Shown here: one piece after another, positions 10,023 through 48,397 of the stretch | How the letters are laid out: every line of letters starts with the position of its first letter | Position numbering within the stretch: the first letter of the stretch is position 1 | Assembly (NCBI RefSeq): GCF_900185015.1 | Contig: NZ_FXYD01000005.1 | Coordinates: forward strand, 62,001-126,000 | DNA length: 64,000 nucleotides | Reading direction: 5' to 3' | From: Octadecabacter ascidiaceicola | Lineage (GTDB): Bacteria > Pseudomonadota > Alphaproteobacteria > Rhodobacterales > Rhodobacteraceae | Position numbers and translations under genes: made by a program | Notes under the pieces: generated by a model | Databases searched by the model: none | Told to the model about the DNA's origin: nothing | What the model saw: only the letters and a program-made list of their open reading frames with translations

Positions 10023-10537
10023 GCGAAAAAGACTACCGCGCGGGTCTTGTGATTGAGGTCAACGACCGTATGCAGCGCGATTACCGATATGAATTGGCCG
10101 TTGATGTTGGCGGCCTGGCGGACGGGTTCACGCCCCATTACTCGCCGGCAGAAATGCTGGCGATGGGCGTGTTTGAGGGCAAGTATTGCAACGACTGCAC
10201 CGATGAATTGCCCACTGAATGGTTTGATGGAGCCAAAACATCGGACGTTGCGAACGTTGAGCTGAACTATTTCGGTGTAAAAAGCCGCCAACGCCTCTCG
10301 GAATGGCGTCGAAAGGGCTGGATATACGAGCCCGACCCACGTGGCTGGTTTCAATGGTATTGCCGCTATTATTTGGGTCGTCGCATTGAGGCGCTCGACG
10401 CGGTTCAAATCAAACGCTGGCGTGCGTTTTCACGGCATGCGGGGCAGGTGCGGGCAAACTGCGACCCGGGCGACATTTTTTGCCGCCCGCGCCAACGGCA
10501 GGGTTTGCTGCAATGGGCCCATGATCCGCTGATCTAG
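10013..10537 (+). CDS. Conserved protein of unknown function coupled to hemF
   Basis: The 174-residue product is hydrophilic with no signal peptide or membrane segment. It has paired cysteines (KYCNDC near residues 59-64, and NCDPGDIFC near 150-158). The region between them is rich in Trp and Tyr (WYCRYYLGRR), with a C-terminal RQRQGLLQWAHD motif. I recognise it only as a conserved hypothetical. Its ATG lies inside the end of hemF (ten-base overlap, different frame), so it is probably made together with HemF. The Cys pairs could bind metal, but that is speculation. Confidence 0.75.
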   Translation: MGLSEKDYRAGLVIEVNDRMQRDYRYELAVDVGGLADGFTPHYSPAEMLAMGVFEGKYCNDCTDELPTEWFDGAKTSDVANVELNYFGVKSRQRLSEWRRKGWIYEPDPRGWFQWYCRYYLGRRIEALDAVQIKRWRAFSRHAGQVRANCDPGDIFCRPRQRQGLLQWAHDPLI

Positions 10538-10547
10538 GCCCCCGCGC

Positions 10548-11582
10548 TTAGCCGTTTCTGATCGTATCAATCATCAATTGAACGTTCTCTGGATCCGCGT
10601 CTGGCGTGATCCCGTGACCGAGGTTGAAGATATGCGGCCCGTTTTGCAGCGCATCCACGATGCGACGTGTTTCCGAAACGAGGGCGTCGCCGCCAGTGAC
10701 CATGTGGGATGATTTCAGGTTGCCCTGCACGCAGCCGCCGATTTGCATTTTGTCGGCTGCCCATGCGGCTGTGACACCGTCATCCAGCGCAATGCAGTCG
10801 GCACCAATGGCCTCGTGGAGACCAACGTATTTCTCGCCCGCGCCACGGGGGAAGGCGATGATCGGTGTATTCGGGTGTTTTGCCTTAAGCGCGGCGACGA
10901 TGCGGGCCATTGGTTTGATCGAGTAGTTTAGGAAGTCATCACCCTTAAGCGAACCCGCCCAGCTGTCGAAGAGCTTAACGACTTCGGCGCCAGCGTCGAT
11001 CTGCATTGACAGGTAATCGATCGTGCCCTCGGTGATCACATCAAGAAGCCCTTCGAAAACGGCTTTGTTTGCATCTTTCAATGCATGTGCTGGCCCTTGA
11101 TCCGGCGTGCCTTTGCCCGCGATCATATAGGTCGCAACGGTCCAAGGTGCGCCCGCAAAGCCTATGAGTGTTGTTTCGGACGGCAATTCACGGGACAGGA
11201 TTTTGACCGTTTCATAGATCGGGGAAAGCGTGTCGTGGATCGCGCTGACGGGTTTCAGCGCCTTCAGCTCATCTGACGTGGTGATTGTCGACAGGCGCGG
11301 GCCTTCGCCGGTGACAAACCACAAATCAGCGCCCAAAGCTTGGGGCAGCAGCAAAATGTCAGCAAACAGGATGGCCGCGTCGAAACCGTAGCGGCGAATT
11401 GGCTGTAATGTGACCTCAGCGGCGAGTTCGGGATTGTAGCACAGGGACAGGAAATCACCGGCTTGCGCGCGGGTGGCTTTATATTCTGGCAAGTAGCGGC
11501 CCGCCTGCCGCATCATCCAAATCGGGGGCGTTGGCAGGGTTTCACCTGCTAGGGCGCGAAGAATTGTCTTTTGCGTGCTCAT
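10548..11582 (-). CDS. hemE: Uroporphyrinogen decarboxylase
   Basis: HemE removes four acetate carboxyls of uroporphyrinogen III to give coproporphyrinogen III in the cytoplasm. The 344-residue protein has the N-terminal signature [15 protein letters not shown], followed by [13 protein letters not shown] and the [12 protein letters not shown] region. The C-terminal [16 protein letters not shown] also matches. I placed the start at 11582, where GGAGG sits a suitable distance upstream; a longer frame begins at 11636. It converges with the hemF pair and diverges from hemC across a 93-base promoter region. Confidence 0.95.
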
Positions 11583-11675
11583 TATGGCCTCCAATTGCTT
11601 TCTTGTCGGTGTCTCGTTTGGGCGTTGCCGAGTCAAGTGGTTGTAAGGGCCACGGGGCGCGGCTAATTGTGCGTT

Positions 11676-12641
11676 ATGGAAATTGATTTGCCCTCAGCGG
11701 CCCAGCCTTTGAAAATCGGTACACGTGGATCGCCCTTGGCGGTCGCGCAGGCTCATGAAACCCGTGCCCGCTTGATGAAAGCGCATGATTTACCTGAAGA
11801 TGCGTTTGAGATTTGCGTGATCAAAACGACCGGTGATGATCGCACATTGATCGATGCGGATATCGCGCTGAAGACGATTGGCAACAAAGGTTTGTTCACC
11901 AAAGAGATCGAAGAGGCGATGTTGCGCGGCGATATTGATATCGCGGTGCATTCCACCAAGGACATGCCAGTTGAGCAGCCCGATGGGTTGGTGCTGGACG
12001 TGTTTTTGCCGCGCGAAGATATGCGCGATGCGTTCGTGTCTGTTAATCATGCCGGAATTTCCGATCTGCCGCAGGGCGCCGTGGTTGGCACATCCAGCCT
12101 GCGCCGTCGTGCACAGCTATTGGCGAAACGTCCGGACCTGAAGGTCGTTGAATTTCGCGGTAACGTGCAGACGCGGTTGAAAAAGCTGGGGGACGGCGTG
12201 GCCGAAGCGACGTTTTTGGCGATGGCGGGGCTGAACCGCATGGATATGGGTGTTCACGCGACGGGCGCGATATCCGTTGAAGATATGTTGCCAGCGATTG
12301 CCCAAGGCACCATCAGCATCGAACGCCGCGTCGACGATCTACGTGCGCGCGATATGCTGGTGGCTATTCATGACGTCGCGGCGGGGCAGCAAATGGCGGC
12401 GGAACGCGCGTTTCTGGCGGCGCTTGATGGGTCTTGCGAAACACCGATTGCGGGCTTGGCTTTGATTGAGGGTGACCAGATTTGGCTGCGCGGAGAAATA
12501 TTGAAGCCGGATGGCAGCCAAGTGTTTACCGGAGAGAGGCGTGGGCCGATTGCGGATGGTGCTGCTATCGGACGCAGTCTGGCTGAAGAATTACTTGGTC
12601 AAGCTGGACCAGATTTCTTTGAGGCGGTGGTGGCGGGTTAA
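11676..12641 (+). CDS. hemC: Porphobilinogen deaminase (hydroxymethylbilane synthase)
   Basis: HemC joins four porphobilinogens into hydroxymethylbilane on a covalently bound dipyrromethane primer. The 321-residue product has [13 protein letters not shown] at the N-terminus, the HSTKDMP loop and the [11 protein letters not shown] motif. Cys254 in DGSCETPI is the primer attachment site. The ATG at 11676 fits the family start; a TTG nine bases earlier is less likely. The gene is divergent from hemE, so the two probably share control. Confidence 0.95.
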
Positions 12642-12688
12642 CTGAAGTCCGTTCACTGTACTTCTTAACCGAATGCAAAATGTGAGTC

Positions 12689-12838
12689 TTACTCCTCAAG
12701 TTCGCAACTTTTCGTGGCTTCATCCCAACTGCCACCTGCGTCCAAGCAACTGTCTATTTGAAGAAAAACACTATCAATTAACCAGATCAATCCAACGAAA
12801 ATGATAGTGGCAAGTCCAAATCTTCGCGCAAGTGTCAT
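12689..12838 (-). CDS. 49-residue single-pass membrane protein with a paired-Cys tail
   Basis: This small reading frame encodes one hydrophobic helix (about residues 9-27) followed by the tail CLDAGGSWDEATKSCE, whose two cysteines (31 and 45) are 14 apart. The C-x2-GG-x-W pattern is familiar from small envelope proteins, so a periplasmic disulfide-bonded loop is likely. GGGAAG lies just before the ATG. It begins 16 bases after the stop of the FAD dehydrogenase on the same strand, so they may be cotranscribed. Its function is unknown. Confidence 0.6.
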   Translation of the reverse strand: MTLARRFGLATIIFVGLIWLIDSVFLQIDSCLDAGGSWDEATKSCELEE

Positions 12839-12854
12839 TCTTCCCGCCATTCCC

Positions 12855-14234
12855 CTAATCCGGTATCAACTTCCCCGGATTGAGGATGCCATTGGGATCT
12901 AGTGCGCCTTTAATCTTGCGCATCATATCAAGGGCGACTGGATCTTTTCGGCGGCGCATGGTGTTGAGTTTGGACAGGCCGACGCCGTGTTCGGCGGAGA
13001 AACTGCCGCCGAGGTCGGCGACGATGTCTTCCACGGCTTCGATGATTTTGTCCATTAAGTCTTGATCGTCACGCGAGGGGTAGACGCTGTAATGGATGTT
13101 GCCGTCCCCTAGGTGCGCGACGAAGTTCGGCTCATGGTCAGGGTCGAGCGCGGCCATGGCAACGCCTACACGCTCAAAAAACTCCGGAACCAGATCGAGT
13201 GGGAATGCGATATCGGTGTCGACGATGGGTTGGCGCCAGAACGCCAGCTCTGCGGCGGCTTCACGGCGTTCCCACATTTCGCGACGTTGGGATTCGTTTT
13301 GGGCAACGGCGGCGTCTAGGACCATGCCGCTTTCCATCATATCGGACATGATCTCGAGCAAGGTTTCATTCACGTCCGTATCAGTCGTAGTGGCGACCTC
13401 GACCATGATGTTGATGTCTTGGGGCCCCTCGAACGGTTCGCGTGCACCTTCAAAGCGGTCCATATAGACGTCGATATAGTTGCGCGGCATGTATTCGAAC
13501 GCCTCGACCGCGCCGCCCGTGGCGTCTTGAGTGCGGTTCAGTAGGGTAAGTGCGTCTTCAAGGGTCGGCGTGGCAACCATAGCCGTTGCGTAGGCTTTGG
13601 GCTTGGGTGCGAGTTTGACGACGGCCTTGGTGATGACGCCAAGGGTCCCCTCAGAGCCAATCAGAAGCTGGCGCAGGTTCAGGCCGGAATTGTCTTTGTG
13701 CAGCGCTGTCATGAGGTCGACGATTCGACCGTCAGCAAGCACGGCCTCAAGGCCCAGCACCAGATCACGTGTATTGCCGTAACGCAGCACGTTGGACCCG
13801 CCCGCGTTGGTAGACATCACGCCGCCGATCATTGCAGAACCCCGTGCGCCGAAAGTCAGTGGAAAAATCAGGTCTTCGGCTTCTGCGGCGTCGTGCAATG
13901 AGGATAGAATCACGCCAGCATCGACCACAGCGGTACGGGCACTGGTGTTGATGTCATGAATTGTGTTCATCCGATCAAGGGACAGCAAAACGCCACCGGG
14001 GGCGTAGGTGCCGCCAACCAGCCCAGTATGGCCCGAAACCGGGGTGATGGATTGGCGCTGTTCGTTGGCCAGTGCCATGATTTGCGAGACTTCTTGTGTG
14101 GATGCTGGGCGTAAAACGACACCAGGTTCGCCAGAATACTTGCCCGACCAGTCTTTTGACCAGCGCGCGACATCGTCCCCGGTCAACGCATTGGCGGTCC
14201 CTACGATCGCCTCAAAATCTTGCAACAGTGCCAT
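12855..14234 (-). CDS. FAD-binding dehydrogenase of the GlcD / D-2-hydroxyglutarate / D-lactate type
   Basis: This 459-residue flavoprotein oxidises a D-2-hydroxy acid. The N-terminal PCMH-type FAD domain contains SGHTGLVGG and MSTNAGGSNVLRYGNTRD. The C-terminal domain contains the metal/substrate motifs AHLGDGNIHY and SAEHGVGLSK, and NPGKLIP closes the protein. These features are shared by glycolate oxidase GlcD, D-2-hydroxyglutarate dehydrogenase and D-lactate dehydrogenase. No glcE or glcF is adjacent, so a stand-alone D-2-hydroxyglutarate or D-lactate dehydrogenase is more likely than glycolate oxidase. Confidence 0.85.
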   Translation of the reverse strand: MALLQDFEAIVGTANALTGDDVARWSKDWSGKYSGEPGVVLRPASTQEVSQIMALANEQRQSITPVSGHTGLVGGTYAPGGVLLSLDRMNTIHDINTSARTAVVDAGVILSSLHDAAEAEDLIFPLTFGARGSAMIGGVMSTNAGGSNVLRYGNTRDLVLGLEAVLADGRIVDLMTALHKDNSGLNLRQLLIGSEGTLGVITKAVVKLAPKPKAYATAMVATPTLEDALTLLNRTQDATGGAVEAFEYMPRNYIDVYMDRFEGAREPFEGPQDINIMVEVATTTDTDVNETLLEIMSDMMESGMVLDAAVAQNESQRREMWERREAAAELAFWRQPIVDTDIAFPLDLVPEFFERVGVAMAALDPDHEPNFVAHLGDGNIHYSVYPSRDDQDLMDKIIEAVEDIVADLGGSFSAEHGVGLSKLNTMRRRKDPVALDMMRKIKGALDPNGILNPGKLIPD

Positions 14235-14310
14235 ACATTACCTCTAGCAGTCAGAGCCTACGCAACTTGTGCGTGAAATCAAAGGGAGACAAGTCGAAAT
14301 AAAGGGTGTG

Positions 14311-14387
<77 letters not shown>

Positions 14388-14508
14388 ATGCACAGCGGGC
14401 GGAATAGTCGCGCTAGCGCTGCCTGTCAAATCGAAACTGACGCTTTTGGGGGGTTGTTCTTAGTCTCGCACCTTGATCAAGTCCGCTGACAAAGACAAAG
14501 GGCGCATT

Positions 14509-17500
14509 ATGTCATCAAAACAGTGGGAATTTTGGGTAGACCGGGGCGGTACATTTACCGACATCGTTGCACGCACACCTGATGGAAAATTGGTGACTCA
14601 AAAGCTTCTGTCGGAGAATCCAGAGCAATACGCAGATGCAGCCGTGCAAGGGGTGCATGATTTGATTGGCACTCCGAATCCCCCCGTCGGTTCGATTTCT
14701 GCTGTGAAGATGGGCACGACCGTTGCAACCAACGCGTTGCTGGAACGAAAAGGCGAGGACGTGTTGTTGCTGATCACCGAAGGTTTTCGTGATCTTCTTA
14801 AGATCGGCTATCAAACGCGGCCCGATTTGTTCGCGCTTGAGATTAAGCGCCCTGAACTTTTGTACACCGAAGTCGCGGAGGTGCAGGAGCGCCTGAATGC
14901 GGATGGTAGCATTCTGAAAGGTCTGGATGAGGTGGCGGTGCGTGCCGCTCTACAATCGGCGTTTGATAAAGGGGTGCGGGCCGTCGCGGTTGCACTGTTG
15001 CACGCATATCTTAACCCTGCACACGAGATTCTGATCGCAGAAATCGCGCGGGAAATCGGGTTTACACAAGTTAGCACAAGTCATGAGGTTTCGCGCCTCG
15101 CCAAGCTTGTTGGACGTGGGGACACGACGGTTGTAGATGCCTATCTGTCACCAATTCTGCGGCGATATGTAAACCAAGTCGCGGGTGCGTTGGATGTGGG
15201 CCGCGTTTGTGAGCGGTTGTTTTTTATGCAGTCCAGTGGCGGCCTAACAGATGCTGGACGTTTCCACGGGCGCGACGCGATCTTGTCCGGTCCTGCCGGT
15301 GGAATCGTCGGCATGGTCAAGACGGCTGAGGCCGCTGGCTATGGCAAGTTGATCGGCTTTGACATGGGCGGCACGTCTACCGATGTGAGCCACTATGCAG
15401 GCGAATACGAACGCTCCTTTGAGACCGAAGTCGCTGGCGTGCGGATGCGGGCACCTATGATGGATATTCACACGGTTGCGGCAGGTGGTGGGTCGATCTG
15501 TCGGTACGGCGATGGCCGTTTTCAGGTTGGTCCGGAAAGCGCAGGTGCCAACCCGGGCCCTGCGTGTTATCGCCGTGGTGGGCCGCTGACCGTCACCGAT
15601 TGCAATGTGCTGTTGGGTAAGCTGAACCCAGATCATTTCCCCCATGTGTTCGGGCCAAACGGTGACCAACCTCTGGACGTTGCGACCGTACGGTCAAAGT
15701 TTGAAGCCCTCGCTGAAGAGGTCGCCAACGAAAGTGGTGAAGCACCACGCGCGGTGGAAGACATCGCCGAGGGGTTCCTTGCGATTGCCGTCGATAATAT
15801 GGCGAATGCGATCAAGAAAATCAGTGTTCAGCGTGGTCATGACGTGACGGATTACACCTTGCAGTGCTTTGGTGGCGCAGGTGGGCAGCACGCCTGCCTT
15901 GTGGCCGAGGCGCTGGGCATGTCCCGTGTGCTGATCCATCCGTTCGCGGGCGTTCTGTCCGCGTTTGGCATGGGCTTGGCTGAACTGCGCGATTTGCGAG
16001 AGGTTCAGTTTGACGCCCCGCTTGCTGATGTGTCAAAGGCTGAAGCGACCTTGGCTGAACTGGGATCTGCTGCGCGTGATGCGGTGTTGTCCCAAGGCGC
16101 GAAAGACGTACGTAGCGAACTCTGGGCCTACTTGCGCTACAGCGGGACACAGCAAGACCTGAAAGTTGCCTTTGGTGCGGCTGACGCGATGAAGGCCGCG
16201 TTTGAGGCGGCACATTTGGCGCGTTTCGGGTTCACAAGCCCTGAGGCCGAAATTCTGTTCGAAATGCTGAGCGCCGAGGCCATTGGCGAGGGCGCGGCAC
16301 TGCCCGACCTTCGGGTAAAACAAGCGCAATCCCCTGACCCAATCGCTGTACATGATCGCCCATTCTATGAGCGTGCATCGTTGGGAATAGGCGATAAAGT
16401 CAGAGGCCCTGCGATCATTTTGGAACCGACAGGCACCAATGTCATCGAACCCAATTGGTCAGCAGAAGTGGATACATTGGGTAATCTAGTTTTGACGTCT
16501 GAGGCGCAACAAACAAACCGCAGCGCAAGCACCGAAGTCGACCCTGTCGTGCTTGAGGTGATGTCCAACTTATTCATGTCCGTGGCGGATCAGATGGGCG
16601 CGACTTTGGCCAACACGAGCCAGTCGGTGAATATCAAAGAACGCTTTGATTTTTCCTGCGCGATCTTTGATGGCTCTGGGGATCTGGTGGCGAATGCGCC
16701 ACATGTTCCGGTGCATTTGGGGTCCATGTCCGACAGTATCAAAACGGTGATGAAAGGCTGGCCATATGTGGTCGAGGGCGACGCGTTCATGCTGAATTCG
16801 CCCTACAACGGTGGTACGCATTTGCCGGATGTCACGGTGGTTACGCCTGTGTTTATCGATGGCAAGCCGCGCTTCTGGCTTGGGTCACGGGGACATCATG
16901 CCGACATTGGCGGCCGCACGCCGGGGTCCGCGCCGCCCGACAGTCAACACATCGATGAAGAGGGCGTGTTGATCGACAATGTTCAGCTGGTTTCAAAGGG
17001 GCGTTTTCTCGAGGACGATACTCGCGCGACGCTGTCATCAGGGCGATACCCGTGCCGCAACATTGATCAGAACGTTGCGGACCTGAAGGCACAGGTGGCT
17101 GCGAACGCGACGGGTATGGCGGAGATAAAACGGATTTGCTCTGGCTATGGTGTGGATGTCGTCACAGCCTATATGGGCCACGTCCAAGACAACGCAGAAG
17201 AAAGCGTACGCCGTGTGATTGATCGATTGTCAGATGGGTCGTTCACCTACCCGATGGACATCGGCCAAACGATACAAGTCTCCGTTTCCGTGGATAAATC
17301 CACTCGTACTGCGACTGTTGATTTCACTGGAACGAGTGCGCAGCATAGCGGCAATTACAACGCCCCCTATTCGGTTTGCTGTGCCGTGGTGCTGTATGTT
17401 TTCCGCACGCTTGTTGGCTCAGCCATTCCCCTCAACGAAGGGTGCTTGAAACCGCTCAAGATTGTTGCGCCGAGTGGCAGCATGCTGAACCCGACTTATC

Positions 17501-35645: not shown

Positions 35646-36407
35646 TCAGGCGAATTGGGTTCGAATTAGGCCCAGCAACGCGAGGCCGATGAGCAAGATG
35701 AGACAAACAGGACGGTAATAGGCAGACAGGCGTTCGGTAAAGAGCAGTTGGCCCATAAGGACGCCGATCATCGTCGGTACGGCAAATACAAGTCCACGCG
35801 ATATTCCGGAAAAGTCCATCACACCGAATAGTAAAAGCACAAGCATGGAAGTTGCGGAGCCGAGGAACAGGTACAGCACAAGTGACGCCCGCATAACATG
35901 CGCGGGTTTGTCCGCAGCCAAAACGTAAAATGCGACCACCATACCGCCGACATGCGCCACGCCAGAAGCGATTCCCGCCAAAGTGCCAGTTCCGTAGAGG
36001 CCGGCTTTGCTTGCCAAAAACGGCAGCTTTAGTTTCGCCAGTTGGCTTATTGCTAGGACAACAATCACACTCAGTGCGAGGGCCTTAGATATCTCAACGG
36101 GTAGCGACAATGTTAGCCAAAGACCAATGGGCCACCCGACCAAAGCACCAATCACGAGCCCATAGGCCATGGGGCGATCTGCTTCTGCCCAGCCGTTCTT
36201 CAACATCAACAACGACGCGGACATTTCTAACCACCACAACATCGGGATCAACTCGACTGGGGGAAGAATGACCACGGCAGTTGCCATAACCATCGCAGAG
36301 AGTGCGAAGCCTGAAAACCCACGTACGACACCGGCAAACATTGTTAATCCCAATAAGATCAAAAATTCGCCCTGCGTCAGGTTGGTCGTTTCAAGCAGCC
36401 AGTCCAT
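35646..36407 (-). CDS. TauE/SafE family membrane carrier, probable sulfite exporter
   Basis: This 253-residue protein has about eight hydrophobic helices in two repeats, the TauE/SafE layout, with the N-terminal GLTMFAGVVRGFSGFALSAM block. Family members export sulfite, sulfoacetate or related anions. It starts one base inside the ackA stop and lies 18 bases before soeA, within the taurine operon, so removing excess sulfite made by Xsc is the likely job. Direction and substrate are inferred. Confidence 0.82.
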   Translation of the reverse strand: MDWLLETTNLTQGEFLILLGLTMFAGVVRGFSGFALSAMVMATAVVILPPVELIPMLWWLEMSASLLMLKNGWAEADRPMAYGLVIGALVGWPIGLWLTLSLPVEISKALALSVIVVLAISQLAKLKLPFLASKAGLYGTGTLAGIASGVAHVGGMVVAFYVLAADKPAHVMRASLVLYLFLGSATSMLVLLLFGVMDFSGISRGLVFAVPTMIGVLMGQLLFTERLSAYYRPVCLILLIGLALLGLIRTQFA

Positions 36408-37468
36408 TATGAAGCGCCCAGTGTGGCGGCGTCCACCGCGATTTGACGTTCTTCGTCGGCCTTGATGACATGCAATGGCACATCACCAAGAAATTTCAGG
36501 TGGGTCATAATACGGTCGCGAATTTCAGCGGAGTTTTCACCGATTCCGCCAGTAAACGCGACGGCATCAACGCCACCCATCGCCACAATCGCAGACCCTG
36601 CATGGCGTGCGGCCCAGTAGCAAAAGTGATCAACTGCGAACTTGGCTTGTTCGGTGTCAGCGGCCAACAGTAAGCGCATGTCATTGGCGCCTCCCAACCC
36701 CTTTAAGCCAGAATCCTTGTTCAAACGGCGAGACGCCTCGTCTGCGCCATGGATTTCCGCCATGCGCAGTACGGCCATGCCATCGATCGCGCCGGATCGT
36801 GTGCCCATTGTCAGCCCGTCCAGCGGAGAATACCCCATCGAAGTGGCAACGGACTTGCCATGATGGATCGCACAAAGGGACGCGCCAGAACCGAGGTGAA
36901 ACGCGAGAAGGCGGTTAGGTAGTTTGTCTTCGAACTGCGTAACGATCCAAGCGTATGACAGCCCATGGAACCCGTATCGGCGAATGCCCATGTCACGGTC
37001 TTTTTTGGGGATTGCGTAGGCGGTGGCAACATCGGGATTTGTCGCGTGAAATGCTGTTCCGAAGCTCGCGTATTGCGGCAGGTCCGGTGCCAAAGTTTGC
37101 AACGCACGAATGCCCGCAAGGTTGTTTGGATTGTGTAGCGGCGCCAGCGGGGTCGCCGCCTCAATGCCCGCAATTACGTCATCGGTCACGCGACATGGTT
37201 GCACCAAGGACGTGCCGCCATGCACAACACGGTGGGCAGCGGCGGTCAGGTCTTTGGTTTTGATGCCTTGAGCGTCAAGGCTGGCAAGGATCGCTTTTAA
37301 TGCTACGTCGTGATCGGGTGCGGTAATGTTTTTGTCATCCGCCCCAAGCTCGATATGCGCCAGTGAGCCACCAATGCCGCTGACTTGTCCCTTCAACACT
37401 TCGGTCAGGTCGGACTTAAACAATGCCACCTTGATGGAGCTGGATCCTGCGTTGACGACTAAAATCAT
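36407..37468 (-). CDS. ackA: Acetate kinase family protein with an altered active site
   Basis: At 353 residues this is shorter than the usual 390-400. It keeps VNAGSSSIKV, the Arg80 in HRVVHGG, YGFHGLSY, the GTRSG Arg224 and FTGGIGEN, so the ASKHA kinase fold is clear. The catalytic Asp expected in FDTAFH is Gly137 (codon GGA at 37058-37060), and the usual GTRSGDID reads GTRSGAID. Activity may therefore be weak or changed. It overlaps pta by four bases (ATGA) and would turn acetyl phosphate from Xsc into acetate and ATP if active. Confidence 0.82.
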   Translation of the reverse strand: MILVVNAGSSSIKVALFKSDLTEVLKGQVSGIGGSLAHIELGADDKNITAPDHDVALKAILASLDAQGIKTKDLTAAAHRVVHGGTSLVQPCRVTDDVIAGIEAATPLAPLHNPNNLAGIRALQTLAPDLPQYASFGTAFHATNPDVATAYAIPKKDRDMGIRRYGFHGLSYAWIVTQFEDKLPNRLLAFHLGSGASLCAIHHGKSVATSMGYSPLDGLTMGTRSGAIDGMAVLRMAEIHGADEASRRLNKDSGLKGLGGANDMRLLLAADTEQAKFAVDHFCYWAARHAGSAIVAMGGVDAVAFTGGIGENSAEIRDRIMTHLKFLGDVPLHVIKADEERQIAVDAATLGAS

Positions 37469-38391
37469 GAGGCAGCTACAATTGCGCCAAGGGCGATTGA
37501 ACTCAGGCGCGCGGCTGCGGGGTCAGCCCTTGATGTCAGCAAAATCGGCACCTTTGCACCCATGACGATGCCGCCAGCGCAGCCGCCTGTAAGGTAAACA
37601 AACGATTTGAACAGCGCGTTGCCCGAAACGATATCCGGCACGATGATCGCATCCGCTTGCCCTGCAACTGGGTCATCCGTCAGCTTCTTGGCGCTCACAG
37701 CTTTGGGCGACATGATGAGGTCAAATGCCAAGGGGCCGGAAAAGTCGGCGTCTTTGATGTTTTCAATCGCCCAGTCCCGCAATTCGCGACCTTCCATAGA
37801 TGATGGCACGCTTTCAATCGGGGATTCTGTCGCAGATAAAAACGCGACCTTCGGGCGTGGGTTTCCAATCTTGTGCAGCAAGCTCACGACCTCAGAGGTC
37901 GCATCTTGACGGGTTCGAATGTCTGGGTTCACGTTTACAGCCGCATCCGAGATTGTGATTGAGCGGCTGCCATCGGGCGTGGTGATATGGAAGATATGCA
38001 CAAACCGCTTGCCGGTACGCAAGCCTGCATCACGTGACACGGCAGCGCGCATAAATGCGTCGGTGTGCAGTTGTCCCTTCATCAAAACATCGGCGCGTCC
38101 TTCACCACAGGCAAGGGCGGCAGCAGCACCCGCTTCAGCTTCGCCGTTTGTGTCGATGATCTCAAATCCGGAAATGTCCCAGCCCAGTTTGTCAGCTTCT
38201 GCCTCGATATCGGCGCGCTCGCCTGTGAACAGCGGCACCATCATGTTGGCTTGTGTCGCTTCCATCGCGGCAAGCATCGGCAATGGTGCGCCAGCGCGGG
38301 CGATTGCGACGCGCGGGCTGGGCGCGTTTTGGGCTTGCTGAATGATGTGGGCAGGGGCGTCGGCCACGGCGTCAGATAGGAATGATGACAT
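37465..38391 (-). CDS. pta: Phosphate acetyltransferase (short form)
   Basis: Pta converts acetyl phosphate, the product of Xsc, to acetyl-CoA for central metabolism. The 308-residue protein is the short, catalytic-domain-only form (PTA_PTB family). It ends with NALFKSFVYLTGGCAGGIVM and has DVLMKGQLHTDAFM and VAFLSATESPIESVPSS in the middle. I used the ATG at 38391; the frame extends to 38409. It follows xsc after a strong hairpin and overlaps ackA. Confidence 0.9.
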   Translation of the reverse strand: MSSFLSDAVADAPAHIIQQAQNAPSPRVAIARAGAPLPMLAAMEATQANMMVPLFTGERADIEAEADKLGWDISGFEIIDTNGEAEAGAAAALACGEGRADVLMKGQLHTDAFMRAAVSRDAGLRTGKRFVHIFHITTPDGSRSITISDAAVNVNPDIRTRQDATSEVVSLLHKIGNPRPKVAFLSATESPIESVPSSMEGRELRDWAIENIKDADFSGPLAFDLIMSPKAVSAKKLTDDPVAGQADAIIVPDIVSGNALFKSFVYLTGGCAGGIVMGAKVPILLTSRADPAAARLSSIALGAIVAAS

Positions 38392-38419
38392 GAGTACGAG
38401 GCCTTTCAAAATTAGAGAA

Positions 38420-41948: not shown

Positions 41949-43937
41949 TTACTGCTGCTGAGCAACAGCCGCCGCAAATGCACGGCTATCAACGGCGAGG
42001 TTCGCTTGGCTGAACGGGGATTTATCCTGATCATCGGAACGGAAGAACTGGCTGTCGACTGCGATTATTTTCCATTCACCATCAATATTGAGCAAAAACG
42101 GCGAGCCACTGTCGCCCTGCGCCGTATCACATTCGTGCAAGATTGAATTGTCCTCAAACGCCTCAACAACGCGACACCCTTGGTTGCCTGACAGGTTATC
42201 GCCAGTGTCCCAAGAATACCCGGCTTGATTGACCAGCAGTCCGGATCGTCCGATCTGGCTTATGTCTGCGGTCGTGAGTTCATGCACGTCCAAATAGCCG
42301 ATTTCGTCACCAAGATTGCGATCAAGAACAACCAACGCCCAGTCATGGCCATTGCCTCCGCCAGCCTCTTGGGTGTCTGGAGTGTAGCTAGGGTCAAACA
42401 CTGCGGCAGTTACTTTGGCTTCACCAATTGAGTTACCCAGTGATAGCCCTGCGCGGAACATAACAGGCGTGAGGGTTTCGTTCCCTGTATCCGTGACGCA
42501 ATGCGCAGCCGTCAGTACTAATGCTGGGCCCACAAGCGTTCCTGTGCATGAGCCTTCTTGCAGTTCCAGTGATCCGATAGAACGCCAAGGTGATTGCGTT
42601 GCATCAACCAGAAAGCGGTCGTCGCGGCCAAAGAAGTGGTTCTCAAGACCAGCAGGGCGCGAACGGCCAAGGCAATCAGCCGTGTCGGAAAACGCTTCGC
42701 ACGTACCATCGCCAACAGAGGCTTCGTTACAAATGCCATCAAACGCGGTGTTACAGGTGTCGGTGCGGTTGCGCAGGTAAGCAACTGCCGCGCAGTCGGT
42801 TACATCTGTGCCGGATGTGCAGTTGTCTGTGCCGATACCCGGCTCATCACATTCGTTGTCATTGGCCCAGCGGCAGCTGTCTTCGCCGCCAATCGCCATG
42901 GCACGACAATCGGTCGCGTCGGTACCGGTGTCACAATAGATCGTGCCGCCAAAGTTCACATCATCGCATTCGCCGTCATTGGAATACTGGCAAGAATCGT
43001 CGCCCAGTTGCGTGCGCAAATCTGCCGGAACGAGCGAAAGCAAGCGGGCTAAAGCTTCCGGCGACGTTCCGTACATATCGCAGTCCGTCGCGTCAGAGCC
43101 ATCAATGCATTGCCCGCCACCGCCATAGCGCAGCTCGTCACATTCGCCGTCGTTGGACCATTGGCAGCTGTCATCATCGAGGCCTGCAGCCAGTTGGCGG
43201 CAATCCGAAGTGTCAGTGCCATCTTCACAATAGCCACCGCCACCGTAACGTGCCTCATCACATTCGCTGTCATTAGCATATTCGCACGTGTCCCCGACGT
43301 TGCCGATAGGCGTCAACGTAAGGTCCCCAAATGCTGCGCAGTCGTTGGTGTCGGTGCCAGCATCACAAAACCCTTGGCCGCCATAACGTGCCTCGTCGCA
43401 TTCGTTGTCATTGGCAAACGGGCAGGAGTTGTCGCCGCCAACCAACGGATCAATCGCAGCGCTCGTGCTAACAGAAGAAAGGCAGTCGGTCGCATCAGTT
43501 CCAGGATCACACGCGCCCGTGCCGCCATAGAGTATGTCGTCACATTCGTTGTCATTATTCCATCGACAGGTGTTATTGCCCAACTCATTGATGGTTTGTT
43601 CTGCAATACCCAATGCCCGCGCGCGGTCTAGGAAGTCCGCTTCACGTTGAACCTGCCACGCGGCACAATCGCTTGTGTCGGATCCGTCCTGACATGACCC
43701 CGTGCCGTTATATCGGTACTCGTCGCACTCGTTGTCGTTGGCGAATGTGCAGCTGTCGTCGGCGATGCCTGCACGCAACAAGGTACAATCCGTCGTATCC
43801 GTGCCCGCGTCGCAGTACCCTTGACCGCCATAACGTTCCTCGTCGCACTCGTTGTCGCCAGCATAGTCGCAGGAATCTTGCGCAAAGGCGGGTAGGGCGA
43901 CGACGAAGGTCAAAAGGATCAAAAGTGAGCGAAGCAT
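41949..43937 (-). CDS. Secreted nine-repeat cysteine-rich protein with C-terminal trypsin-like domain
   Basis: The 662-residue protein has a signal peptide (about 1-19) and nine repeats of about 31 residues. Most have the pattern D-S-C-x-Y/F-x-N-D-x-E-C-D-E then R-Y-G-G, a third Cys and G-T-D-x-x-D-C. The spacing of Cys and Asp/Asn recalls calcium-binding LNR or LDL-receptor class A modules, but with four Cys each. Residues about 435-662 form a chymotrypsin-fold domain with His479 (TAAHC), Asp532 (GHDWALVVLD) and Ser610 (GDSGSP), so it should be an active protease. It lies between tauR and tpa yet has no evident link to taurine. Confidence 0.85.
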   Translation of the reverse strand: MLRSLLILLTFVVALPAFAQDSCDYAGDNECDEERYGGQGYCDAGTDTTDCTLLRAGIADDSCTFANDNECDEYRYNGTGSCQDGSDTSDCAAWQVQREADFLDRARALGIAEQTINELGNNTCRWNNDNECDDILYGGTGACDPGTDATDCLSSVSTSAAIDPLVGGDNSCPFANDNECDEARYGGQGFCDAGTDTNDCAAFGDLTLTPIGNVGDTCEYANDSECDEARYGGGGYCEDGTDTSDCRQLAAGLDDDSCQWSNDGECDELRYGGGGQCIDGSDATDCDMYGTSPEALARLLSLVPADLRTQLGDDSCQYSNDGECDDVNFGGTIYCDTGTDATDCRAMAIGGEDSCRWANDNECDEPGIGTDNCTSGTDVTDCAAVAYLRNRTDTCNTAFDGICNEASVGDGTCEAFSDTADCLGRSRPAGLENHFFGRDDRFLVDATQSPWRSIGSLELQEGSCTGTLVGPALVLTAAHCVTDTGNETLTPVMFRAGLSLGNSIGEAKVTAAVFDPSYTPDTQEAGGGNGHDWALVVLDRNLGDEIGYLDVHELTTADISQIGRSGLLVNQAGYSWDTGDNLSGNQGCRVVEAFEDNSILHECDTAQGDSGSPFLLNIDGEWKIIAVDSQFFRSDDQDKSPFSQANLAVDSRAFAAAVAQQQ

Positions 43938-43988
43938 AGAGTAAACCTTTGTCTTGAAATCAATGGTGTTACCTTGGCGCAAAACAAA

Positions 43989-44016
43989 GGGCCGGGTCCA
44001 GTGCTGAACCCGACCC
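43989..44016 (-). terminator. Hairpin after the short cysteine-rich gene
   Basis: Read leftward, GGGTCGGGT and ACCCGGCCC pair around a ten-base loop, followed by TTTGTTTTG. It should terminate the short cysteine-rich gene. A homologous hairpin follows tpa at 44575-44600. Confidence 0.75.
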
Positions 44017-44043
44017 TAAGGGATTTTGTTATTATTGCGGCTA

Positions 44044-44523
44044 CTAGTTGGTTGGCTTGGAAGCGACACAGTCCATTGCATCGGTGCCAACGTCACATGC
44101 ACCGGTTCCACCCAATGATGGGTCGTCGCATTCGTCATCATAGGACCAGCGACACGTGTTGTCGCCCAAAGCGTTGATCGCGACGTCGTTTAAACCAAGG
44201 GCACGCGCGCGCTCTACGAAGTTGTTCTCACGCTCAACCTGCCATGCTGTGCAGTCGGTTAGGTCAGATCCGTCCATACAAGCGCCTGAGCCGTTATAAC
44301 GGTATTCGTCACACTCACCGTCGTTGGCGAAGGTACAGCTGTCGTCGTTGATGCCCGCACTTACCAGTGAGCAGTCTGTCGTATCGGTGCCTGTTTCACA
44401 GTACCCCTGGCCGCCATAGCGCTCTTCGTCGCACTCGTTGTCGTTCGCGTATTCGCAAGAGTTTTGCGCATAAGCAGGCAATGCGATGATGAAAGTAATG
44501 AGTATTAGAAACGAGCGAAACAT
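44044..44523 (-). CDS. Secreted three-repeat cysteine-rich protein, paralogue of the neighbour
   Basis: This 159-residue protein (signal peptide about 1-19, ALPAYA) has three of the same four-Cys repeats and ends shortly after the third. It matches the first 155 or so residues of the neighbouring protease along its whole length. The match includes the linker AWQV-x-RE between repeats 2 and 3 and the RARALG helix. It lacks the protease domain. It is either a duplicated and shortened copy or the ancestral form. Function unknown; calcium binding is inferred from the Asp/Asn pattern. Confidence 0.8.
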   Translation of the reverse strand: MFRSFLILITFIIALPAYAQNSCEYANDNECDEERYGGQGYCETGTDTTDCSLVSAGINDDSCTFANDGECDEYRYNGSGACMDGSDLTDCTAWQVERENNFVERARALGLNDVAINALGDNTCRWSYDDECDDPSLGGTGACDVGTDAMDCVASKPTN

Positions 44524-44574
44524 AGAAACAGCCTTTGGTTGTGGATTTCACGGGCACCTTGCCGCAAAATAATA

Positions 44575-44600
44575 GGGCAAGTCCATCCCTGAACCCGCCC
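44575..44600 (-). terminator. Hairpin after tpa
   Basis: Read leftward, GGGCGGGTTCA and TGGACTTGCCC can pair with some G-T pairs around a four-base loop, followed by TATTATTTTG. It lies 31 bases after the tpa stop and resembles the hairpin at 43989-44016 in sequence as well as in fold. Confidence 0.65.
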
Positions 44601-44631
44601 TAAGATACTGTAACTGTTCTGTTTGTTTGGT

Positions 44632-46228: not shown

Positions 46229-48397
46229 ATGGCCAGTTATCGCTTTGATGTAGATGAAATGACGTGCGGCGGCTGCGCTGCACGCGCTCAAAAGGCGATG
46301 GCTGGGGTTGAGGGCGTGACCTCTGCCCATATCAATTTTGCGGACCGCACAGCGACGGTTGAGGGCATCACAGGGCTGGAAAGCCTGATCGCTGCAGCCT
46401 CAACAAAGGCTGGTTATCCGGCAAGCCCAATCAAGGCAGGTGGCGTGGCGCAGGAACGTGTAGATGAGGCACCAGCCTTGTTGCGCTCAACGCTGATTGC
46501 CGGCGCAATAACGCTTCCGATTTTCATCGTCGAGATGGGTGGGCACGTATTTCCATCGGTCCATCATTTCATCGCACAAGTGATCGGCATGCAGGACAGT
46601 TGGTTGATCCAGTTTGTCCTTGCGACGCTCGTCTTGATCGGCCCTGGCCGTCGGTTTTACACCAAGGGAATCCCGGCATTGTTGCGTGGTGCGCCTGATA
46701 TGAACTCGCTCGTCGTGCTCGGTGCAACTGCTGCATGGGGCTATTCGACCGTAGCAACGTTTCGCCCGCAATGGCTACCGGACGGAACCATTGCGGTCTA
46801 TTTCGAAGCGGCTGCGGTGATTGTGACGCTCATTTTGCTGGGCCGCTACCTTGAGGCCCGCGCAAAGGGCCGAACGGGTGCCGCGATCAAGCGGCTGATC
46901 GGACTGCGCCCTGATACCGCGAAAGTTGAACGGGAGGGTGCGTTGATATCGGTGCCGCTCGACAAAGTTGTAGTCGGGGATGTGGTTCACTTGGCTGCGG
47001 GCGCACGTGTTCCGGTGGATGGAACACTGCAACGTGGCACAGGGTTCGTTGACGAAAGCATGATTTCTGGCGAGCCGATCCCAGTGGAAAAAACGATTGG
47101 TGACGCGTTGGTCGCTGGCACCGTCAACGGTACATCCGCGCTGGTGTTTGAAGCGCGCGCCGTTGGTTCTGATACCATGCTCGCGCGGATCATTGCGATG
47201 GTCGCCGAGGCTCAGGGCGCGCGGTTGCCGGTTCAAGGTCTCGTGAATAAAATAACGCTGTGGTTCGTTCCGGCGGTCATGGTGATCGCCGCGTTTACTG
47301 TGGTGATCTGGCTGGTTCTTGGGTCCTTACCACAGGCTTTGGTTGCTGGGGTTTCAGTTCTCATCATTGCCTGCCCCTGTGCGATGGGCTTGGCGACGCC
47401 AACATCAATCATGGTCGGCACGGGTCGCGCTGCTGAACTTGGGGTATTATTCCGCCGCGGAGATGCATTGCAGGCTTTGCAGGGTGTTGATGTCGTGGCG
47501 TTTGATAAGACTGGGACACTTACGATTGGCGCGCCTGTCGTGGTGTCCAATACGTTACGCACGCAAGACCTCGCAGCCGTTGCCGGTGTTGAAGCTGCCT
47601 CCGATCACCCATTGGCGAACGCAATCGTGACGTTGGCGGGGCGACATTTGCCTCTGGCAACCGAGGTTGAGACAATACCGGGTCACGGCGTGCAGGGCGT
47701 CGTCGAAGGCCGCCGCATCGTGATCGGCAATGCAGCGATGATGGCTTGGGAAGGCGTTACAGCGCAGGCGGACGTTCCCGCAGGGCAGACCCCAGTCATG
47801 GTCGCGATTGACGGGAAATTCGCCGGAACGCTTGGCTTATCTGATGCGCCGAAACCAACAAGCAAGGCGACGGTGCAAGCAATGAAAGCACGCGGTCTGG
47901 AGGTCGTAATGGTGTCTGGTGATACGCAAGAAGCCGCGGGTGCGCTGGGCGATGATCTAGGTATCGATCACGTGATCGCAGGCGTTCTACCGGACGGTAA
48001 AGTCGACGCCGTTAAAGAGCTGCAAACCGGCGGCCGTAAGGTCGCGTTTGTTGGGGACGGCATCAATGACGCCCCCGCACTTGCTGTGGCCGATGTGGGC
48101 ATCGCGATGGGGACTGGCACCGACGTTGCCGTTGAAAGCGCGGATGTTGTGTTGGTGTCGGGCAATCCCGCAGGCGTTGCGCACGCAATTGAAGTGAGCC
48201 GCCGCACGTTGCGCAATATCTGGCAAAACCTCGGCTGGGCCTTTGGGTACAACATCATCCTTATTCCCGTTGCGGCACTGGGGCTTTTGTCACCGCAACT
48301 TGCCGCTCTGGCGATGGCGGCGTCTAGTGTGTTGGTTGTTGTTAACGCTCTGCGGTTGCGCTGGGTCAAAGTGGCTGAATTGGAGGTATCACAGTGA
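46229..48397 (+). CDS. copA: Copper-exporting P1B-type ATPase
   Basis: This 722-residue inner-membrane pump expels Cu(I) from the cytoplasm. A single N-terminal heavy-metal domain binds metal through Cys13 and Cys16 (MTCGGCA). Eight membrane helices include the CPC motif (Cys382, Cys384). The phosphorylated Asp426 lies in DKTGTLT, and the N-domain HP pair (SDHPLANA) and GDGINDAPAL are present. The operator upstream and the cueR gene that overlaps its end (GTGA) point to copper rather than zinc or cadmium. Confidence 0.94.
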   Translation: MASYRFDVDEMTCGGCAARAQKAMAGVEGVTSAHINFADRTATVEGITGLESLIAAASTKAGYPASPIKAGGVAQERVDEAPALLRSTLIAGAITLPIFIVEMGGHVFPSVHHFIAQVIGMQDSWLIQFVLATLVLIGPGRRFYTKGIPALLRGAPDMNSLVVLGATAAWGYSTVATFRPQWLPDGTIAVYFEAAAVIVTLILLGRYLEARAKGRTGAAIKRLIGLRPDTAKVEREGALISVPLDKVVVGDVVHLAAGARVPVDGTLQRGTGFVDESMISGEPIPVEKTIGDALVAGTVNGTSALVFEARAVGSDTMLARIIAMVAEAQGARLPVQGLVNKITLWFVPAVMVIAAFTVVIWLVLGSLPQALVAGVSVLIIACPCAMGLATPTSIMVGTGRAAELGVLFRRGDALQALQGVDVVAFDKTGTLTIGAPVVVSNTLRTQDLAAVAGVEAASDHPLANAIVTLAGRHLPLATEVETIPGHGVQGVVEGRRIVIGNAAMMAWEGVTAQADVPAGQTPVMVAIDGKFAGTLGLSDAPKPTSKATVQAMKARGLEVVMVSGDTQEAAGALGDDLGIDHVIAGVLPDGKVDAVKELQTGGRKVAFVGDGINDAPALAVADVGIAMGTGTDVAVESADVVLVSGNPAGVAHAIEVSRRTLRNIWQNLGWAFGYNIILIPVAALGLLSPQLAALAMAASSVLVVVNALRLRWVKVAELEVSQ

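What the first reader, a model, noticed from the sequence alone, without database searches (positions are those of the whole stretch)
41949..44523. Secreted four-Cys repeat proteins, one fused to a trypsin-like protease, inside the taurine locus
The sequence shows nine and three copies of a roughly 31-residue unit with four Cys and many Asp/Asn. The larger protein also carries a protease domain with intact His479, Asp532 and Ser610. The pattern recalls LNR or LDL-receptor class A modules but has fewer cysteines, so it may be an undescribed bacterial calcium-binding or adhesion module. The smaller protein could be a partner, inhibitor or decoy of the protease. Its place between tauR and tpa is unusual.
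Basis: partly seen in the sequence, partly recalled or inferred. Interest (0 to 1): 0.72.

Follow-up and report, generated by a model that had tools for sequence, protein, structure and literature searches.

The report
Four-cysteine repeat collar on bacterial trypsin
A marine bacterium carries a secreted trypsin-like enzyme preceded by nine small cysteine- and aspartate-rich modules, plus a separate mini-protein of three such modules; the module has no named family in the libraries searched, recurs across related bacteria, and looks like a calcium-held regulatory or binding part of the enzyme.

Summary
In detail: two adjacent genes for secreted proteins (Octadecabacter clade) carry nine and three copies of a ~31-residue four-Cys unit, and the larger ends in an S1 trypsin-like domain with intact His479/Asp532/Ser610. 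No Pfam or NCBIfam model recognised the repeat in the proteins scanned. It fails the LNR and LDL-A membership tests; only a weak match to the acidic end of LDL-A exceeds a permutation control. Relatives, nearly all alphaproteobacterial, attach the unit to S1 proteases, a caspase-like protein, peptidoglycan-binding or Sel1 domains, or carry it alone. A two-Cys sister form lacks Cys1 and Cys3 together, implying 1-3 and 2-4 disulfides. Asp27 and Asp30 are present in 397 of 397 units reaching that far. In 80 of 80 scripted cases the last repeat lies exactly 11 residues before the protease start, so the last repeats and protease look like one rigid unit with a variable N-terminal arm. The small gene stems from one tandem duplication of that arm, is adjacent in 5 of 5 cases, and is under purifying selection. 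Taurine linkage is a clade-specific address.

The parts
41949..43937 (-). large protein P0001, 662 aa: signal peptide, nine 4-Cys repeats, S1 protease domain
43878..43937 (-). signal peptide of the large protein (residues 1-20, by eye)
43785..43877 (-). repeat 1 (residues 21-51)
   Evidence: profile match
43665..43757 (-). repeat 2
43482..43574 (-). repeat 3, after a longer linker
43338..43430 (-). repeat 4
43200..43292 (-). repeat 5
43080..43172 (-). repeat 6
42906..42998 (-). repeat 7 (first of the three core repeats)
42792..42881 (-). repeat 8 (core)
42672..42761 (-). repeat 9 (core), 11 residues before the protease start HFFG
41952..42638 (-). S1 trypsin-like domain from His434 (HFFGRDDR) to the end; H479, D532, S610
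44044..44523 (-). small protein P0002, 159 aa: signal peptide plus three repeats, no protease
44371..44463 (-). small protein repeat 1
44251..44343 (-). small protein repeat 2
44068..44160 (-). small protein repeat 3
43988..44017 (-). terminator-like hairpin between small and large gene (13 pairs)
44573..44602 (-). terminator-like hairpin between tpa and the small gene (13 pairs), similar in sequence to the other; suggests that the duplicated unit included the upstream region

Best explanation
An exported, disulfide-rich S1 protease whose N-terminal half is built of small modules, each closed by two disulfides (Cys1-Cys3, Cys2-Cys4) and most likely holding one calcium with the invariant aspartates. 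The last three modules are spaced rigidly onto the protease domain and act as a fixed collar that stabilises it or gates activity and substrate access. The further N-terminal modules vary in number and form a binding arm for a substrate or the cell wall. The small protein is a stand-alone copy of three arm modules, made by one tandem duplication, and probably binds the same target or the protease in trans. Shown: architecture, homology, spacing, selection; one duplication is supported but not strongly. Inferred: disulfide pairing, calcium, collar, arm and trans roles.
For: Signal peptides on both proteins by eye. Triad invariant in 64 of 64 rows. Even Cys count after residue 20 in 80 of 86 GDSG-bearing frames. 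Distance from last repeat to the protease start motif exactly 11 residues in 80 of 80 scripted cases; last two repeats 12 apart in 79 of 80; the next gap 10 or 11 in 78 of 78; earlier gaps 8 to 57. The five repeat-bearing protease frames that the motif had missed show the same 11 by eye, and 7 of 7 proteins found by the repeats alone, without the protease motif, show 11, 12 and 10 or 11. D27 and D30 in 397 of 397 units that reach that far, D8 89% (rest N), D12 84%. Two-Cys sister repeats are homologous by profile (Prob 97.4, E 1.4e-11; 0 of 120 permutations) and lack Cys1 and Cys3 together in 10 of 10 rows that I assembled. Repeats also occur on a caspase-domain protein and beside PG_binding_1 domains. 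Small proteins form one group in a tree (85/79) and are under purifying selection (e.g. dN 0.068, dS 1.28). Published analogue: PAPP-A LNRs, with two disulfides or one, bind calcium and are needed for cleavage of IGFBP-4 but not IGFBP-5 (PMC9579167, passages).
Against: No direct evidence of calcium. At least 11 of 18 matching genus genomes lack the small protein, so it is not generally needed. A cleaved pro-domain would also explain a fixed linker. Six of 86 GDSG-bearing frames have an odd Cys count. The 80 loci were found by patterns that hold the HFFG and GDSG motifs, and the 410 units by a four-Cys profile; both favour what they were built on. Support for one origin of the small protein is below the starred level.
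Confidence: 0.5

Rival explanations
1. The repeats are a pro-domain: the enzyme is secreted as a zymogen, and cleavage in the 11-residue linker before HFFG frees the new N-terminus that S1 proteases need, releasing the repeats.
For: The conserved H-[FY]-F-G stretch aligns near the N-terminus of the glutamyl endopeptidase chain 1p3c, and the linker length is constant. The need for a free N-terminus is recalled S1 biochemistry.
Against: Repeat number varies widely (2 to 11; 1 in three frames) and a stand-alone copy is kept under selection, which a discarded segment does not explain well. No cleavage data.
Confidence: 0.25
2. The repeats are mainly an adhesion or cell-wall targeting arm with no effect on catalysis.
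For: Repeats occur without a known domain (L223, L226) and in proteins with PG_binding_1 domains (L225, L229); repeat number is variable.
Against: The last three repeats have fixed spacing to the protease, unexpected for a loose anchor.
Confidence: 0.2
3. The four cysteines bind a metal such as zinc, or sense redox state, rather than forming disulfides.
For: Four cysteines per unit; a gene with HMA and E1-E2_ATPase domains lies on the far side of tpa (46229-48397).
Against: Both proteins look exported; two-Cys forms keep C2 and C4 and the acids; there is no CxxC pair.
Confidence: 0.04
4. The proteins belong to taurine catabolism or its control.
For: 13 of 80 named loci have the protease gene between tauR and tpa, and 16 of 80 have at least one taurine gene in the fetched flank.
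Against: In the other 64 loci no tauR, tpa or xsc passed the cut (40% identity, 200 aa) in the fetched flank, though some flanks are cut by contig ends; terminator-like hairpins separate the genes here.
Confidence: 0.03

Closest known systems
S1 (trypsin/chymotrypsin) peptidases; nearest solved sequence 7uxg 'Serine protease' (E 1e-24), then glutamyl endopeptidase 1p3c (E 2e-11)
   Same: Pfam Trypsin over cut-off, catalytic triad, GDSG
   Different: Preceded by the repeat collar at fixed spacing
Animal S1 proteases with N-terminal LDL-A modules (enteropeptidase and complement factor I chains appear as LDL-A holders; their architecture and function are recalled)
   Same: Small Cys-rich acidic modules N-terminal to a trypsin domain; C-x-D-G-[ST]-D-x3-C end similar to LDL-A
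   Different: Four cysteines instead of six, no LDL-A model match, bacterial; no membrane anchor noticed in the window proteins
PAPP-A (pappalysin-1) LNR modules (PMC9579167, passages)
   Same: Protease with small calcium modules of reduced disulfide number that affect substrate choice, with parts that work in trans
   Different: PAPP-A is a metalloprotease and its modules are LNRs; the profile test here does not link the repeat to the Notch LNR pieces used
Two-Cys repeats of secreted proteins and lipoproteins (alignment A5), e.g. in this genome at G000:C2:493207-493362
   Same: Homologous by profile
   Different: Lack Cys1 and Cys3, longer second half; no Pfam or NCBIfam model over cut-off in the members scanned

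Membership tests
S1 peptidase (Pfam PF00089) | profile score above cut-off | tested here: met
   54 bits against 20.6
S1 peptidase (Pfam PF00089) | His-Asp-Ser triad | tested here: met
   H479, D532, S610 invariant in 64 of 64 rows
S1 peptidase (Pfam PF00089) | proteolytic activity | not testable with these tools
   needs assay
LNR / Notch repeat (PF00066) | six cysteines, three disulfides | tested here: not met
   396 of 410 distinct units found have the four Cys of the consensus, which has no further Cys. Published PAPP-A LNRs have fewer disulfides, so this alone is not decisive
LNR / Notch repeat (PF00066) | match to the family model | tested here: not met
   no listed match at the repeat genes of 11 genomes at E<=10 (candidates pass a first filter); profile-profile Prob 2.2, 21 of 120 (Cys fixed) and 13 of 120 (free) permutations as good. 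The six Notch pieces used were cut as printed, most without their first Cys
LNR / Notch repeat (PF00066) | one bound calcium per module | not testable with these tools
   acid conservation only
LDL receptor class A (PF00057) | six cysteines, bonds 1-3, 2-5, 4-6 (pairing recalled) | tested here: not met
   four Cys
LDL receptor class A (PF00057) | match to the family model | tested here: not met
   no listed match at the repeat genes of 11 genomes at E<=10
LDL receptor class A (PF00057) | acidic calcium cage DGSDE before the last Cys | tested here: inconclusive
   profile-profile Prob 21, E 0.001; 0 of 120 Cys-fixed and 1 of 120 free permutations as good
taurine catabolism gene set | linkage kept wherever the gene occurs | tested here: not met
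   16 of 80 loci

The most novel reading that the evidence does not exclude
An undescribed bacterial calcium-module superfamily, in four-Cys and two-Cys forms, that serves as a shared regulatory or docking part for unrelated extracellular proteases (S1 and caspase-like), with free-standing module proteins acting on them in trans: a bacterial counterpart of the LDL-A/LNR-steered proteases of animals.
Probability: 0.3. Interest if true: 0.65.

Novelty: new variant of a known kind. Interest (0 to 1): 0.45.

Why it matters
A recurring module that the searched family libraries miss can be named and placed: it marks a set of exported proteases and other envelope proteins, nearly all in Alphaproteobacteria as far as seen. 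The fixed collar gives a direct test of whether bacteria also steer trypsin-like enzymes with calcium modules, and the natural stand-alone copy gives a ready trans-acting reagent. If true, LDL-A/LNR-like control of extracellular proteolysis would have an independent bacterial version.

Tried and rejected
LNR membership: rejected. My first idea, an LNR with one disulfide simply removed (notes), does not hold on spacing: the first Cys of the unit lines up with the second LNR Cys in the printed Notch sequences, so only the Cys2-Cys4 bond has a clean LNR counterpart (C3-C6, recalled). LDL-A membership: rejected, with a weak similarity kept as a lead. Mobile or viral origin: no match of the small protein in plasmids or phages, and of 3 candidate stretches in viral contigs none was confirmed. 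Trypsin versus Glu specificity: the residue six before the active Ser is Asp in 85 of 86 GDSG sites, but 1p3c has Asp there too, so specificity is left open. Concerted evolution of the pair: not supported, the small proteins group together. Print: nine searches of the PMC open library were run. Five aimed at such a repeat or protease gave no paper that I recognised as describing it; one search looked for five repeat-motif strings and found 0 papers. Two were about LNR (39, 60), one about the genus (38), one for 7UXG (77, 0 papers). I saw listings and abstract beginnings only, except passages of PMC2605481, PMC2770060, PMC9579167, PMC2726630 and PMC3646047.

Full report
What is there. On the minus strand the window holds tpa, a 159-aa protein with a signal peptide (44044-44523), a 662-aa protein with a signal peptide (41949-43937), a PdxR/MocR-type regulator (tauR by position) and xsc (signal peptides judged by eye). 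The 662-aa protein carries nine repeats and an S1 domain; the 159-aa protein carries three repeats and no other recognised domain. A profile of the 31-residue unit finds these twelve units with E from 8e-16 to 1e-10. Five of its 40 rows came from the window, but relatives found apart from it share the pattern, so it is not chance. The genus is Octadecabacter by the named relatives.

The repeat. Consensus DSCRWANDGECDEPRYGGTGACDDGTDTTDC. A search of the open frames of the 213 sequences then held found 410 distinct units, of which 396 have all four Cys. Of the other 14, 12 show no Cys1 (11 of these matched only over the first half, one over the whole length, with Cys2 and Cys4 only), and 2 show Cys1 and Cys2 but are cut short; one of these lies in the gene split by an insertion. 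The profile is a four-Cys one, so it favours such units. D27, D30 and the last Cys are present in 397 of 397 units that reach that far; D8 is D or N in all; G18 is 98%. No Pfam or NCBIfam model over its cut-off covers the repeats in the window proteins or in the relatives scanned.

Disulfides. A phylum search found 14 of 398 genomes with related units, among them a two-Cys form. Profiles of the two forms match strongly (Prob 97.4; 0 of 120 permutations), and the two-Cys profile also finds some of the window repeats (E 4e-6 to 8e-4; 5 of 299 genomes match it in all). In the 10 two-Cys rows I assembled, from six loci, Cys1 and Cys3 are both absent and Cys2 and Cys4 both present. The simplest reading is bonds 1-3 and 2-4. 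This is inference from joint loss, on rows that I picked from the search output.

Relation to known modules. The Pfam LNR and LDL-A models list no match at the repeat genes in any of 11 genomes at E<=10; their hits lie elsewhere and none is over the cut-off. Profile against profile, LNR gives Prob 2.2 and LDL-A Prob 21; LNR against LDL-A, as a yardstick, gives 1.2. Against 120 permuted profiles with Cys columns fixed, the LNR score is reached 21 times and the LDL-A score 0 times; with all columns permuted, 13 and 1 times. The LNR pieces were cut as printed, which weakens that test. The LDL-A likeness lies at C-x-D-G-[ST]-D-x3-C, the acidic end that holds calcium in LDL-A (recalled). I treat it as a lead for calcium binding, not as membership.

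Distribution. Within the genus, 18 of 19 genomes have a match to the small protein's repeats and 5 of 19 have the separate small gene (G000, G001, G011, G015, G018), each time next to the large gene on the same strand. Of the 13 others, 2 (G009, G013) have 130 bases or fewer upstream before the contig ends, so 11 can be judged. Core-repeat profile: 10 of 388 genomes drawn from the family and 8 of 385 drawn from the class, own genome counted in both, at E 1e-10. A scan of named genomes gave 126 relatives of 168 candidates, of which 80 were kept: Octadecabacter, Marivivens, Pararhodobacter, Rubellimicrobium, Inquilinus, Maricaulis, Oceanicaulis, Bauldia and others, nearly all labelled Alphaproteobacteria or Proteobacteria; one Anaerolineae bin and one 'Mycobacterium' record may be misassigned. 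A search with the whole large protein hit 268 of 394 family genomes, but most of the listed matches cover only the protease. Other carriers: a caspase-domain protein with Sel1 and PG_binding_1 domains (L225), a PG_binding_1 protein (L229), a DUF4189 protein (L224), a Sel1 protein (L095) and proteins of about ten repeats without a known domain (L223, L226).

Architecture. 89 frames were taken from 78 of the 80 loci (none from L148, L169); 80 were scored and 9 left out, three of them small proteins. In 80 of 80 the last repeat ends exactly 11 residues before the protease start H-[FY]-F-G. The last two repeats are 12 residues apart in 79 of 80 (37 in one), and the next pair 10 or 11 apart in 78 of 78. 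Earlier gaps range from 8 to 57, and repeat number from 2 to 11, with 3 the commonest, 41 of 80. Of the six other left-out frames, five have repeats, and in the printed strings the same 11 residues stand between the last repeat and the start; the sixth has no repeat. So the last repeats and the S1 domain look like one rigid body, and the rest a variable arm. The small protein matches the N-terminus of the large one over residues 1-158 at 71% identity.

History of the pair. In a tree of 21 first-three-repeat segments the five small proteins form one group (support 85/79, below the starred level; 88% of bootstrap trees): one duplication rather than repeated copying. Substitution rates show purifying selection (G000-G018 small: dN 0.068, dS 1.28; several other pairs are saturated at silent sites). 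Similar terminator-like hairpins precede both genes, so the duplicated unit probably included the upstream region. The scan as a whole found 7 such sites against a shuffle mean of 4.8, so only the length and likeness of these two speak.

Neighbourhood. 13 of 80 named loci have tauR and tpa on the two sides, and 16 of 80 have at least one taurine gene in the fetched flank: 14 Octadecabacter-clade loci, one Marivivens and one Rhodobacterales bin (some flanks are cut by contig ends). Other groups have other neighbours. The taurine address is kept in one clade and two further loci and says little about function.

Mechanism. I judge a calcium-held collar and arm on a secreted protease the most likely reading (0.5). 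The published parallel is PAPP-A, whose LNR modules have two disulfides or one, bind calcium and are required for one substrate but not another (PMC9579167, passages). The main rival is a cleaved pro-domain (0.25). What is missing is any structure, metal or activity measurement.

Novelty. The protease is ordinary S1; the repeat has no model in the two libraries searched, and its coupling to several exported protein types was not found described in five searches of one open-access library. Interest 0.45.

Noticed in passing
L065 (G003:C1:3808000-3827000), about 10262-15452: In one genus member the large gene is split inside a repeat by an insertion holding three different transposase genes (DDE_3, ISL3, IS1595 types). 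Intact copies exist in other members.
   Followed up: partly
G000:C2:493207-493362 (locus L208): The window's own genome has a short, probably lipoprotein-type protein with one two-Cys version of the repeat (lipoprotein by eye).
   Followed up: partly
L154, L155, L156, L159: Inquilinus records, and a 'Mycobacterium sp. KBS0706' record with the same arrangement, carry two repeat-protease genes in tandem; the Mycobacterium label may be wrong.
   Followed up: no
L158:6911-8002, L168:4367-5476, L181:4749-5858: A second kind of S1 protein with one scored repeat, the same 11-residue spacing and a hydrophobic, perhaps membrane-spanning stretch further on.
   Followed up: no
L225 (G918:C64): A caspase-domain protein with Sel1, PG_binding_1 and about four of the same repeats; the same genome has several proteins of repeats without a known domain.
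   Followed up: partly
L135:3796-6882: In Pararhodobacter a 1029-aa frame with a PPC-domain match (34 bits, cut-off 25.9) lies upstream of the repeat-protease gene.
   Followed up: no
window 35646-38409: Near xsc: TauE-type exporter, acetate kinase family and phosphate acetyl/butyryl transferase family proteins.
   Followed up: no
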